Positions 14,348 to 61,109 of a DNA stretch of 64,000 nt are shown here, piece by piece; position 1 is the first letter of the stretch; each line of letters opens with the position of its first letter. Source of the stretch: Protoeuglena noctilucae (lineage: Eukaryota > Chlorophyta > Pedinophyceae > Marsupiomonadales > Marsupiomonadaceae); NCBI GenBank assembly GCA_958009085.1, contig OY253676.1:982116-1046115 (forward strand), read 5' to 3'. Both the position numbers and the translations under genes were made by a program. A model generated the notes under the pieces. The model was not told the origin of the DNA. It was given only the letters and a program-made list of their open reading frames with translations, and did no database searches.

Positions 14348-16375
14348 TCACGACAGGAATGTCTCTCCGAGCAGCTTCTCCGTCTCGGTCCACAGCTTGC
14401 GTGCGTGGTCGCGGTCGGTGACCTTGGCAACCTTGCGGCAGATGCTGGGGTTGATGACGGGCAGGCCGAACATACCCCACGCTGCGAAGGTGGGGGACAC
14501 GGTTGCCAATCCGCCATGCTTGTTTGCTAGTAACACTCACTGGCCCCATCTACACACTAACCCCATCTAGTGCCGGACATACGCATGCCAGTCACTGCCT
14601 CCCTCTGGCAGCCATGCCCACTGCATGTTGTCACTCACCCGGCCCCAAGAAGTCGCGCGGCTTGACTGCCGGGTCCACTGCCGCGCGGACCTGCGTCAGG
14701 GCCCCCGTGGCCGCGGGCATGCCGAACATGTAGTTGATGATGGGCTCGACGAACGAAGGCACGCCCAGGCGATCCTTCTGCGTGAACAGACACCAAGGCA
14801 CGGTGACAGGGACGTGAAAGGGCTAGGGATGGCATGTTGGGGGCTAGCAGCGAAGCTTTGGGTCTGCGAATGTGCTATGCCAATTGGATTGCAAATAGGC
14901 GGCCCCACGCAGCCAGCGCCTTTGCCCATGCCGTCCTTGGCCCTGCGTCCCATGCTTTTGACAATGCCCTCCCCCTGCAGCATCTCTCGCCTGCAGCCCC
15001 GTCCTCGTCCACCCAGGGTGCGATGCCGTGACGGTGACCTTGGACCCACGCGACTCCAAACGCGACTGCGGGGATGGGGCATATAAGGACAAGTGGCCAC
15101 AGAGAGAGCGATGAGATGGATGACATAGATATGCTTGACTCGAGGCGCGACTGCGGGGGGGATGGGCATGAAGGGTCGAGTGGTTACACACAGAGAGAGC
15201 AATGACATGGATGACATGACGTGCCAGGAGAACAGGGACAGAGACAAACAGAGACAAAAGGAACTAGCCTCTCAGATGCTGTCACAGCTGTGACTCGGGA
15301 GGGTCTGTGTGTGGCACCCTGATCTGTTGTGCTGATGGTGTTCAGCTTGTCCCTTCCCCTCTCTCCTCACCTGCAGCTCCTCGGTGAAGAGCATGTTGGC
15401 GAGCTTGGTCTCCCCGTACACGCGCCACCGGTCGTATGCCTTGGGGCCGTCATAGGTGGGGAAGAGGCCCGGGCCAAAGCGCACGCCATCAGCGGGGGCC
15501 ATGGCCTGGGCGGCGCTAGAGACATTCACCACGCGACCAGCTCCCTTCTCGAGCTGCGGACATGGCCACAAGAGGCAGTTCAGTACTAGACATGCTTACT
15601 TAGAGCACCTGCACAGACTTTCCAGGTGCAACATCACTCACTGCGGGGAGCAGGAGCTTGGTGAGGAGGAAGTGGCCGATGTGGTTGGTGGCCGTCTGCA
15701 TCTCCCAGCCCTTGGAGTTCACCTCACGCTGCGAAGGCGAACAGACTGGGTCTCACACAGAGGCGAGCACACAGCGCATCGTGCCTGCAGTGCTCGCTGC
15801 CCCTTGCCTTCGGCAAAGCCATGATCCCCGCGTTCAGCATCCCCACGTGCAGCTCCTTGTGCTTCTTGAGGAACTCCGCCGCTCCCTTCCTGTGCGCATG
15901 GATGAAAGCCATGCAAGGCTCGCGTATTGGAGGGCCAGCCGCGATCGGCCCGACACGCCTGCGCGTTCGTCCGTCCTCTCTCACCGCTGTCAGGCTCCGA
16001 GGTGTCCATCTGAAGGAATTCCAGCTTCCCCACGCCCTTGGTCCCCTTGCAAGAGTCCTCGATGTCCGCCATGGCCTTGCGCGCGCGCTCCTCGCTGCGG
16101 CACGCCATCACCACCGTCGCGCCTTTCTTGTACAAGGCTCTCGCGGACTCCAGCCCCTGCGAAAAGCGGCGCGCGTGCGATGGAAAACGGATTGAGCGTT
16201 CGCGGCCACGGGCCACGGGCCGCCCTCGCGGGGCCGCGCTGGCACATCGGAAAGCAAACACAGCAGAACATGCATCTGTGATGTTGTTCGCATGCCGCAC
16301 CAGGCCGGAATTCGCCCCGGTGACGAGGACAACGCGTCCCTCCTGTGAGGGAATGTCGTCGGCCGTCCAGCCCAT
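14348..16375 (-). CDS. Short-chain dehydrogenase/reductase, copy A (retinol-dehydrogenase/TIC32-like)
   Basis: NAD(P)-dependent oxidoreductase of the classical/extended SDR family; substrate unknown. It starts MGWTADDIPSQ, a start shared with its neighbour copy. The joined exons give the cofactor motif TGANSGLG, then VVMACRSEERARKA, an NAG motif in an altered context (MLNAGIMALP), the serine strand VVNVSSA and the catalytic YGETK (YxxxK). A late HPGWTRT segment and a C-terminal ARKLWTETEKLLGET tail follow. Length and motif order match RDH11-14/TIC32-type SDRs. Exon order is the same as in copy B directly upstream, so the pair arose by tandem duplication. The intron near 15060-15220 holds a second, degenerate copy of the acceptor and exon start. 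A plastid or ER role is possible, but no targeting peptide is evident. Confidence 0.9.
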
Positions 16376-16589
16376 CCGCGCGGGCGTTTGGAAGCAGCTG
16401 CACCCGACAGAGTGCCACTTGAACGTAGTCACGCGACCGCTACCCCAATACGCGATAGAAATCTTCTCCATCGCCAGGGCATTTTGAGGGTTTTGTCCAC
16501 AGCACGCGCAGGGTGGAATCAAGTCATACGGCGTCAGATTCCGAATAAAAGCCAACAGCTGCCTCTGTTCGGTGATTGTACCCCGATAC

Positions 16590-58220: not shown

Positions 58221-61109
58221 ATGACGACGGGGGAGGACTGCGGGTGAGCGTCTAATGGCGCGTTGCCTAGCGCCCAGCACGGCGTGGCACAAGCCCTGCC
58301 CCCCTCCACGCTCCCCACCCCGCATCTCCCGCAGCCTCTCGCGGCCGTGGGACCCCCGCTTCGACCAGCCCGACATCCCCTCCAGTGATGACTTCTCTTC
58401 TGACCCCGCTGTGTGGGACATGGTCATCGTGGGGTCGGGGGTGGCGGGGAGCGCCCTGGCGTACCGGTGAGACGAGGCGGATGATGATACCGAACGTGCT
58501 GTCGCATCATGTGATAGCAGGCGAAGAGCGCAGGCAGAGTTGCCGTGTCTTGCCACTGCATGCACAGCTGTCGCACGACCCCACAGCCAGGCACGCACTC
58601 AGCACTCGCACCTCCCTCCCCCCCTCCCCGCAGCCAGGCGATGGAGGGCCGCCGCGTGCTGGTGTTGGAGAAGAGTCTCTCCCAGCCCGACCGCATCGTG
58701 GGGGAGCTGCTGCAGCCGGGCGGCTTCCTGAAGCTGCGCGATCTGGGCCTGGCCGACTGTGTCGAGAACATCGACAGCTGCAAGGTGTACGGGTACGCGC
58801 TGTTCAAGGGGGGCCACGTCTCCTGCGTCAAGTACCCCACCGAGCACTACGCCTTCGAGGTGGCGGGCAGGTCCTTCCACCACGGGCGGTTCGTGCAGAA
58901 GCTGAGGGCCAAGGCCGCGTCCAGGTGGGGGAAGTAGGGGAGGCGGGGAGGCGCAGTTGGGGAGACGGCCAACATATGGGAGTGTAAAGAGTGCTAATGC
59001 GGACCCTTTCACTCCCCTGGTCCTCATGGCCACACCAGTCCCCCTCACCCTCCCCGATTACCATTCCCCCTCACCCTCCCTCACTCCCCCTCACTCCCCT
59101 TCACCCCCCCTCACCTCTCCCCCCCTCTCCCCCTCCCCCAGTCCCCTGGTGACGATGCGCCAGGCCGTGGTGCGCAAGCTGCTCGACGTGGACGGCCGTG
59201 AGTGGGACGAGGCGAGCGGGCGACCCGTGGGGGGCGTGGCCTACCGCCACCACTCGGGGGAGGACCGGGAGGCAAGGGCCAAGCTCACGGTCGTGTGCGA
59301 CGGGATGGTCTCCACCTTCCGGCGCAAGTTCACGGTGCGTGGGTGTGGGGGTGGATGGGGAGGGGGCGGTGGGGTGCGGGACAGGGCAGGGCACGCATCC
59401 GCAGTGACACAGAGCTCCCTTTCTTATCTCCCCCTTCCTCGCAACCCATGTATCCCATGCACCGCTATCCCATCTCTCCCCCACTCAGAACCCCTCCATC
59501 TCCTCCCTCTCCTTCTTCGTGGGCCTCCTCCTGGACGGTGCCCAGCTGCCCTTCCCCAACCACGGCCACGTGGTGCTGGGGGAGCCCAGCCCCACCCTCT
59601 TCTACCCCATCTCCTCCAACCAAGTGCGGTGCCTTGCGGACGTCCCGGGAAGCAAGCTGCCCAGCGTGGTGAGGGATGGCGGGTGTGGGGGTGTGAACAT
59701 GCACGCACGCACGCGCGACCAAGCAGCCGCCCATTTGCGAGACGGTGTGCCTGTTGCTGCGAGGAGCCTGGCGGTGCTTTGAGATGCGATGTCCCTATGT
59801 GGTTCACCGCTATCCACTTCTTTGAGATATCCCCACATGACTCACCGCTAGTATTGCTCCACTCAGACGGATGGCGCCATGGCCGAGTATCTCATGAAGC
59901 ACGTGTTCCCCCAAGTGCCCGACATTTTGAAGGAGCCATTCAAGCAGGCAGTTGCCAAGGGACACTTCAAGGCCATGCAGAACAAGGCACTGGTGAGTAT
60001 GCGTGTGTGTCAGTGTGTCATGCAGAACAAGGCACTGGTGAGCGTGGGTGTGGTGAAAGCATGCCAAGCAGAGCACAGCAATGGTGGATCTTGTAGCATG
60101 CTCGCACGCTCGCTTGCGTGCCTCCGCCTCATGCCCTGTCCCCCTCCCTCCCCCGTCCCCCGCAGTCGGCTCAGCCAGTGCAGGTGGCCGGCGCTCTCCT
60201 GCTGGGCGACGCTTACAACATGCGGCACCCACTCACGGGCGGGGGCATGACGGTGGCACTTAGGTCAGCGGCAGCGACATGCTCTGTCTCTCTCATTGCT
60301 ACCCACTCCTCCCCTCGCAGCGACACCAAGCTGCTGTGCGACGTGCTGTGTGTTTGTCTCTCTCATTGCTACCCATTCCCTTGCATCGCAGTGACACCAA
60401 GCTGCTGTGCGACATGCTCCACGGCCTCACTGCCGCGTCTTTGGGCGACCTGGACGCCGTGTCCCGCTGCACCCGCTCCTTCTACCAGACCCGCAAGCCC
60501 CTCGCGGGCACCATCAACACCCTCGCCAACGCCCTCTACCGCGTCTTCTGCTGGTCGCCCTGGGAGCCCCACGAGGAGATGAGGCAGGCGTGCTTCGACT
60601 ACCTCAGCCTGGGGGGGGTGTATTCCTCCGGGCCCGTCTCCCTCCTCTCCGGGCTCAACCCGCGCCCATCCGTCCTCGTCATGCACTTTTTCATGGTGGC
60701 GCTGTTCGGGTGCGGGAGGCTGCTGCTCCCGCGCCCCACGCTGCGCGGGGTGTGGATGGCCGTCCTGCTCCTCTACTGCGCCTGCCGCATCATCCTCCCC
60801 ATTATCGCCAGCGAGGTGAGCGCAGATGCTGGCTGGATGCCTTGCTACGCACCGCCCGTCTCGCATGCTGGGGCGCACATGCTGTGGCAGAGGGGCAGGG
60901 TACCTGGTGCACCATCCTGCACCTCTCTGCACTGTTCTGCACCTCCCTGCACCATCCTGAACCTCTCTGCATCTCACACACCCCCCATCCATCCCACTCA
61001 GGGTGTCCTGGCCGTGTTCCTCCCCGGCCTCATGGCGCCCCCCTCAACGGACTCCTCCCTCGCCGACAAGCTGCCCCACGCCGGCGCGACGACCAAGAAG
61101 CACGACTAG
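58221..61109 (+). CDS. SQE: Squalene monooxygenase (squalene epoxidase)
   Basis: FAD- and O2-dependent enzyme converting squalene to 2,3-oxidosqualene, the entry to sterols, at the ER. Nine exons, about 525 residues. Exon 1 (58221-58243) MTTGEDCG joins in phase to [20 protein letters not shown]. The Rossmann motif [15 protein letters not shown] is split by intron 2. Then come [34 protein letters not shown] (DG motif), [36 protein letters not shown] (GD/flavin motif) and [20 protein letters not shown]. Two or three C-terminal membrane helices lie at about 60670-60815 and 61003-61050. It lacks the N-terminal membrane anchor of animal SQE. Classical SQE is notable because many algae use an unrelated epoxidase. 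Introns 6 and 7 each carry a tandem copy of a splice junction. Confidence 0.97.
59974..60042 (+). repeat. Exact 24-nt copy of an exon end plus donor (squalene epoxidase)
   Basis: Bases 59974-59997 (exon end reading MQNKAL plus GTGAG) recur identically at 60019-60042, 45 bp on. The stretch between is open in the same frame. Confidence 0.95.
60285..60414 (+). repeat. Tandem copy of an acceptor plus exon start (squalene epoxidase)
   Basis: About 58 bp covering pyrimidine tract, CGCAG and the coding start DTKLLCD occur at 60285-60342 and again at 60355-60414. Both acceptors complete the split codon as serine. Confidence 0.95.

What the first reader, a model, noticed from the sequence alone, without database searches (positions are those of the whole stretch)
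15050..60414. Pervasive tandem duplication of exon-intron junctions
In at least 15 introns of 8 genes, a segment covering the last or first 15-35 coding bases plus the splice site is repeated 45-101 bp away inside the intron. Clearest cases: 35033/35104 (34 nt exact), 36998/37099 (28 nt exact), 59974/60019 (24 nt exact), 43849/43931, 36495/36561, 52074/52151/52255, 60285/60355, 38445/38534, 27682/27767, 15050/15137 and 23895-24190 (four copies). Both strands, and both donor and acceptor sides, are affected. Such copies are what the tandem-duplication model of intron gain or extension predicts, but this density in one window is striking. It suggests an ongoing process that stretches introns, moves splice sites or supplies back-up sites.
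Basis: partly seen in the sequence, partly recalled or inferred. Interest (0 to 1): 0.88.

Follow-up and report, generated by a model that had tools for sequence, protein, structure and literature searches.

The report
Tandem duplications lengthening introns in alga
In GC-poor parts of a small algal genome many introns carry short head-to-tail copies of themselves, about half of them running over an exon edge and leaving a second splice site; they land about as randomly as tolerated duplications would, so they show how introns grow rather than a process aimed at splice sites.

Summary
The repeats are real: the named pairs lie at the stated places, 34, 28 and 24 nt exact as claimed. They are mostly whole tandem duplications: in 22 of 34 junction cases the match covers at least 80% of the unit (9% in a control). 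At 28 bits, 39 of 771 introns in 344 kb carry a junction-spanning one, 13 of them in the window. The junction focus needs no special process: uniform placement with neutral decay gives 55-63% junction-spanning cases, against 34 of 66 observed, and starts are no denser at donors than inside introns. Three results go beyond this. Introns in GC-poor regions carry about nine times more per kb than in GC-rich ones (GC given length p = 9e-9). Acceptor duplications are scarce (25 donor, 9 acceptor). The copied exon piece is short: 33 of 34 at most 36 nt, where simulations give 40-48% longer. Using the second site would shift the frame or add a stop in 30 of 39 introns. Best reading: ordinary repair-type duplications, tolerated in introns, filtered by splice-site choice. 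No RNA or strain data were available.

The parts
43849..44004 (+). Donor-spanning tandem duplication, shift 82 nt (copy 1 43849-43923, copy 2 43931-44004), intron 43880-44062 of a DNAAF11-like gene
35030..35159 (+). Donor-spanning duplication, shift 71 nt; by eye two further decayed copies follow to about 35223; intron 35058-35312
36983..37126 (+). Donor-spanning duplication, shift 101 nt, intron 37019-37242
36495..36632 (+). Donor-spanning duplication, shift 66 nt (in frame and open), intron 36517-36773
38430..38563 (+). Acceptor-spanning duplication, shift 89 nt, intron 38301-38543
59974..60052 (+). Donor-spanning duplication, shift 45 nt (in frame and open), intron 59993-60165 of the squalene epoxidase-like gene
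60285..60418 (+). Acceptor-spanning duplication, shift 71 nt, intron 60264-60391, same gene
52069..52288 (+). Donor-spanning duplication of a GC donor (GCGAG), three copies (shifts 78 and 178), intron 52095-52370 of a NIF/BRCT phosphatase-like gene
23896..24180 (-). Multi-copy donor array, unit about 81-87 nt, intron 23802-24155 of a WD40 gene
19803..19903 (-). Donor-spanning duplication, shift 67 nt, intron 19675-19885
22407..22499 (-). Donor-spanning duplication, shift 54 nt, intron 22324-22478
48965..49063 (-). Donor-spanning duplication, shift 56 nt, intron 48877-49057 of a kinase-like gene
15052..15217 (-). Acceptor-spanning duplication, shift 85 nt, intron 15066-15370 of an SDR gene
27680..27802 (-).
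33134..33230 (+). Duplication inside intron 33024-33240, unit 49 nt: example of the intron-internal class

Best explanation
The copies are ordinary short tandem duplications (lag 40-115 nt in 53 of 66) that arise in noncoding DNA, probably during repair of staggered or paired strand breaks. Inside an intron they are nearly neutral because the extra unit is spliced out. A unit that overlaps an intron edge is as harmless, as long as the original site is still used, and it leaves a second splice site with a piece of exon inside the intron. Copies then decay, or in some introns multiply into arrays of 3-4, and the intron grows. Two filters act at the edges: acceptor duplications are mostly lost, as expected if the first AG met after the branch point wins, and edge duplications survive only if the copied exon piece is about 36 nt or shorter. 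The load is concentrated in GC-poor stretches of the chromosomes. Shown: tandem structure, placement, decay pattern, the two deficits, GC dependence. Inferred: the repair origin, neutrality, and splice-site choice as the cause of the two deficits.
For: Whole-unit matches: a permissive gapped alignment covers at least 80% of the unit in 22 of 34 junction cases, 9% of controls (the strict scan alone covers 80% in 13 of 34). Class shares, best hit per intron: 25 donor, 9 acceptor, 32 internal of 66, against simulated donor .28-.32, acceptor .27-.31, internal .38-.44 and .29/.33/.38 with the gene finder in the loop. Start density about flat across the donor. Exon-intron copies differ at 8.7% and intron-intron copies at 16% of columns, near the 2:1 of neutral decay. 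Exon-internal duplications are few, and 6 of 9 have a lag that is a multiple of 3. Acceptor deficit p = 0.0004-0.005, and exon piece over 36 nt in 1 of 34 against 40.5% expected, p = 5e-7 (KS p 1e-6, 1.5e-4). GC dependence.
Against: Duplications are scarcer in intergenic DNA (4, against 53 in or touching introns, below 64.5% GC; p = 0.01 with a hand-set target factor of 1.45 for introns), which a purely neutral process does not predict unless intergenic DNA is constrained or duplication is tied to transcription. The intron-to-exon divergence ratio, 1.84, lies slightly above the six simulated settings (about 1.4-1.8). Decoy splice-site cores are intact in 29 of 34, against 0.70-0.78 simulated (p = 0.03 against 0.70, 0.11 against 0.75, 0.21 against 0.78), a weak hint that some are kept; in the smaller first sample it was 17 of 17 against 0.70-0.76. 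No outgroup shows the pre-duplication state.
Confidence: 0.75

Rival explanations
1. Junction-targeted duplication: something about transcription or splicing at exon edges (R-loops, stalled polymerase, the G-rich start of introns) makes breaks there and copies the edge into the intron.
For: The copied exon piece has a narrow size (6-48 nt, mean 24, 33 of 34 at 36 or less). Introns are denser in duplications than intergenic DNA. The donor share is slightly above simulation (25 of 66 against .293, p = 0.08).
Against: Start density is not clearly higher at the donor than inside introns. The combined junction share is at or below random. Acceptors are depleted, not enriched.
Confidence: 0.12
2. 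Selected back-up or regulatory splice sites: second copies are kept because alternative use is useful, for example for nonsense-mediated decay control.
For: Decoy cores identical in 32 of 39 introns; 17 of 17 in the first strict set.
Against: Shifts are a multiple of 3 in 17 of 39, and in frame and open in 9 of 39. The excess of intact cores is weak in the larger sample (p 0.03-0.21). Divergence is near 2:1.
Confidence: 0.07
3. Intron gain by tandem duplication of coding sequence (Rogers model).
For: The copies hold exon plus splice site. In an early gene model one L020 intron of 65 nt had a lag of 65.
Against: All junction rows of the final set have introns longer than the shift. The L020 case became part of one 317-nt intron with a donor copy when the gene models were retrained on more sequence. 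Copies sit inside longer introns.
Confidence: 0.03
4. Assembly or polishing artefact.
For: No reads were available.
Against: Copies differ from each other, are decayed to varied degrees, and occur in 39 introns on 8 contigs.
Confidence: 0.03

Closest known systems
Natural tandem-duplication insertions in rice (Vaughn and Bennetzen 2014; seen only as summarised in passages of the review PMC7407515)
   Same: Insertions of 10-1000 bp that are tandem or partly tandem duplications, ascribed to paired nicks and end joining; same size range.
   Different: There insertions were studied in the rice genome; here the ancestral state is unknown. A GC-poor concentration and splice-edge deficits were not in the passages seen.
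[quoted passage not shown]
   Same: A duplication over an intron-exon edge that copies the acceptor and exon start; the paper also notes an 83-bp tandem duplication inside the first intron of the same gene.
   Different: There the duplication made a new intron and exon and is dated by related species; here the copy stays inside the old intron.
Rogers 1989 / Hellsten 2011 AGGT duplication model and the Drosophila cases (PMC2891723, passages; Rogers and Hellsten only as cited)
   Same: Tandem duplication involving splice signals.
   Different: That model makes an intron the size of the duplication; here introns exceed the shift.
Introners (PMC9860276, abstract start in a search listing only)
   Same: Bulk change of introns in some eukaryotes.
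   Different: Introners are dispersed families; here 769 intron interiors compared all against all gave one pair with 40 nt or more aligned (81% identity).

Membership tests
Short tandem duplication of repair type | Head-to-tail direct copies in the 10-1000 bp range covering most of the unit | tested here: met
   22 of 34 junction cases at 80% coverage or more, control 9%
Short tandem duplication of repair type | Recent insertion relative to an ancestor that lacks it | not testable with these tools
   no relative or strain genome held
Short tandem duplication of repair type | Breakpoint microhomology or filler | not tested
   most copies too decayed for exact breakpoints; no call made
Tandem-duplication intron gain (Rogers) | Lag equals intron length; duplicated exonic AGGT supplies both splice sites | tested here: not met
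   introns longer than the shift in all junction rows
Tandem-duplication intron gain (Rogers) | Intron absent from relatives at that position | not testable with these tools
   no relatives held
Introner elements | Near-identical intron sequences at many unrelated loci | tested here: not met
   769 interiors all against all: 22 pairs at E 1e-3 or less, 1 with 40 nt or more aligned, no intron with more than one such partner
Intronic minisatellite | Three or more tandem copies | tested here: inconclusive
   seen in 23802-24155, 35058-35312, 52095-52370; 20 introns have two or more hits; the rest show two copies
Intron sliding | Shifted intron position relative to orthologues | not testable with these tools
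   no orthologous gene structures held

The most novel reading that the evidence does not exclude
Short tandem duplication is a leading, compartment-specific force on intron size in this alga. In GC-poor, perhaps low-recombination, regions about a fifth of introns carry a detectable unit, formation is tied to transcribed introns, and the roughly 36-nt limit on the copied exon piece marks how much exon a decoy splice site needs before the spliceosome prefers it. The genome would then be a natural mutagenesis screen for splice-site choice.
Probability: 0.25. Interest if true: 0.72.

Novelty: new variant of a known kind. Interest (0 to 1): 0.5.

Why it matters
It supplies dozens of natural splice-site duplications of different decay in one small genome. 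That makes it testable how introns lengthen without transposons, why acceptor duplicates are rarer than donor duplicates, how much exon context a donor needs to win, and whether duplications gather where selection or recombination is weak. It also shows that junction repeats should be compared with a random-placement expectation (over half) before a junction-specific process is claimed.

Tried and rejected
Ungapped repeat scans alone made the repeats look like exon-edge snippets and junction-specific: 15 of 19 at score 25. Gapped alignment showed longer units, and simulation removed the apparent junction excess.

In the first 264 kb decoy splice sites looked conserved (17 of 17 at 40 bits, 18 of 19 at 28) and exon parts too similar. 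With 344 kb both moved towards neutral values, so I do not claim selection on decoys.

BLAST self-comparison gave only 9 self hits at its lowest cut-off, I think because hits inside the full self-match are culled. A GT-only gene model was replaced after GC donors joined a split gene whose N-terminal part is SMC-like ('SMC4' is recalled). The cross-intron null leaves out matches at equal positions, so it is no test for introners; one search was run for that. Subtelomeric position as the cause: the C1 and C11 subtelomeric stretches (L022, L025) have none and C10 (L024) has two, while an internal low-GC block (L008) has several; GC fits better.

Strain polymorphism: a read-through ORF over the 59974/60019 duplication, used as bait in the protein collection, gave no hit at E 0.001. 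Paper searches: among the rows listed (25 of 66, 20 of 138, 20 of 179, none, 12 of 71, 12 of 86) I saw no title or abstract start that reports junction-spanning duplications at this density or in GC-poor algal regions. Only open-licence PMC papers are searched and most listed papers were not opened, so this is weak.

Limits: no RNA; gene models self-trained; the null used a stricter complexity filter and 609 introns, and no separate null was run for the looser filter. Counts use the best hit per intron among donor, acceptor and internal classes (66 introns); of the 99 hits at 28 bits, 11 in other classes (exon-to-intron without the junction, exon-exon) and all second copies are dropped. One search also drops lags outside 35-125 (57 of 66 kept), and its eligible introns are those of the GC-poor loci while the starts come from all loci. 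One search ran 2500 simulations per setting on 182 introns, one search ran 1400 (1350 kept). The four stretches were chosen near contig ends and those next to L023, L008 and L014, so genome-wide rates must not be read from the 344 kb total.
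Full report
What the window is. The window is the last 64 kb of a 1,046,115-base contig in a 26.3-Mb, 26-contig genome and ends in TTAGGG repeats. Self-trained gene models and Pfam on ten predicted proteins or parts give squalene epoxidase, a DNAAF11-like axonemal factor, three short-chain dehydrogenases, a NIF/BRCT phosphatase, a kinase, a WD40 protein, an SMC-like protein and a Ycf54 protein. 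The nearest named relative of the Ycf54 protein is from Myrmecia (47%), a further one from Trebouxia (39%). I infer a green alga of unknown name. Donors are GTGAG-like; 148 of 771 modelled donors are GC.

The named pairs are present. Intron self-alignment gives 34 hits at 28 bits or more in 609 introns, against about one in cross-intron comparisons. Gapped alignment shows that the match usually runs through most of the unit between the copies (22 of 34 at 80% or more, control 9%), with the intron part more decayed than the exon part. So these are tandem duplications, not copied exon snippets. Arrays of three or four copies occur. In 344 kb, 39 of 771 introns carry a junction-spanning case at 28 bits or more, 13 of 161 in the window.

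Is the junction special? I simulated tandem duplications placed uniformly over each intron and its edges, tolerated if a complete splice site remained, decaying at equal rates except in the protected true exon and splice sites, and found by the same scan. Simulated shares were donor .28-.32, acceptor .27-.31, internal .38-.44; with the gene finder re-run on every simulated locus.29/.33/.38. Observed: 25 donor, 9 acceptor, 32 internal, a junction share of 52% against 55-63% (p = 0.10). Start density is about flat across the donor.

What random placement does not explain. First, acceptor duplications are depleted (9 of 66; p = 0.0004-0.005). Second, the exon piece is short: 33 of 34 at 36 nt or less, mean 24, against 40-48% over 36 nt in simulation; the gene finder does not cause this, since it recovers long pieces as well as short ones. 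Third, load depends on local GC: 23 of 102 introns with a duplication where flanking GC is below 0.63, 7 of 244 above 0.67, and GC remains significant given intron length (p = 9e-9). In the extreme bins the density is 23 duplications in 16.9 kb of intron against 2 in 13.3 kb, so the ninefold ratio rests on few events at the GC-rich end. Fourth, intergenic DNA has fewer than introns in GC-poor bins (4 and 53; p = 0.01 with a hand-set target factor). I read the first two as splice-site choice: the first AG is favoured at the 3' end, and a decoy with little exon loses to the true site. The third may mean weaker purging or more breaks in GC-poor, perhaps low-recombination, regions; untested. The fourth leaves room for a transcription-linked origin.

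Are second copies used? Exon-intron copies differ at 8.7% and intron-intron copies at 16% of aligned columns, a ratio of 1.84; simulated neutral decay gives about 1.4-1.8 through the same scan. Cores of the second splice sites are identical in 32 of 39 introns, slightly more than simulated (p 0.03-0.21 on the 34 best hits). Using them would be in frame and open in 9 of 39. This argues against productive back-up sites; regulated unproductive splicing cannot be excluded without RNA.

Known or new. Short tandem duplications are a known insertion class in plants (review passage), and duplications over intron edges are known singly (potato; Drosophila, exon duplications). The Rogers intron-gain model does not fit, since all junction introns here exceed the shift. 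Introners do not fit. New here, as far as the listed rows of six paper searches show, are the density in GC-poor regions and the two splice-edge deficits.

Noticed in passing
window, gene models; e.g. 52095: About 19% of modelled introns (148 of 771) start with GC instead of GT, mostly GCGAG; allowing them joined a split SMC-like gene. Not checked with RNA.
   Followed up: partly
window 38056-38075: About three interstitial TTAGGG telomere-type units inside modelled intron 37930-38227, followed by a short inverted repeat (by eye); about 26 kb from the chromosome end.
   Followed up: no
window 63766-64000: Chromosome end with TTAGGG repeats rather than the TTTAGGG of Chlorella and Coccomyxa; Auxenochlorella also has TTAGGG (PMC12636532 passages).
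   Followed up: partly
L023 (C2:1740001-1750000): The densest block found: 9 of 24 introns with a junction-spanning duplication.
   Followed up: yes
window 14348-18256: Two neighbouring minus-strand SDR genes (PF00106) that look by eye like tandem paralogues.
   Followed up: no
L010 582-1947: Coding-exon repeats with lags of 33-246 nt; all 11 rows listed have lags that are multiples of 3.
   Followed up: no
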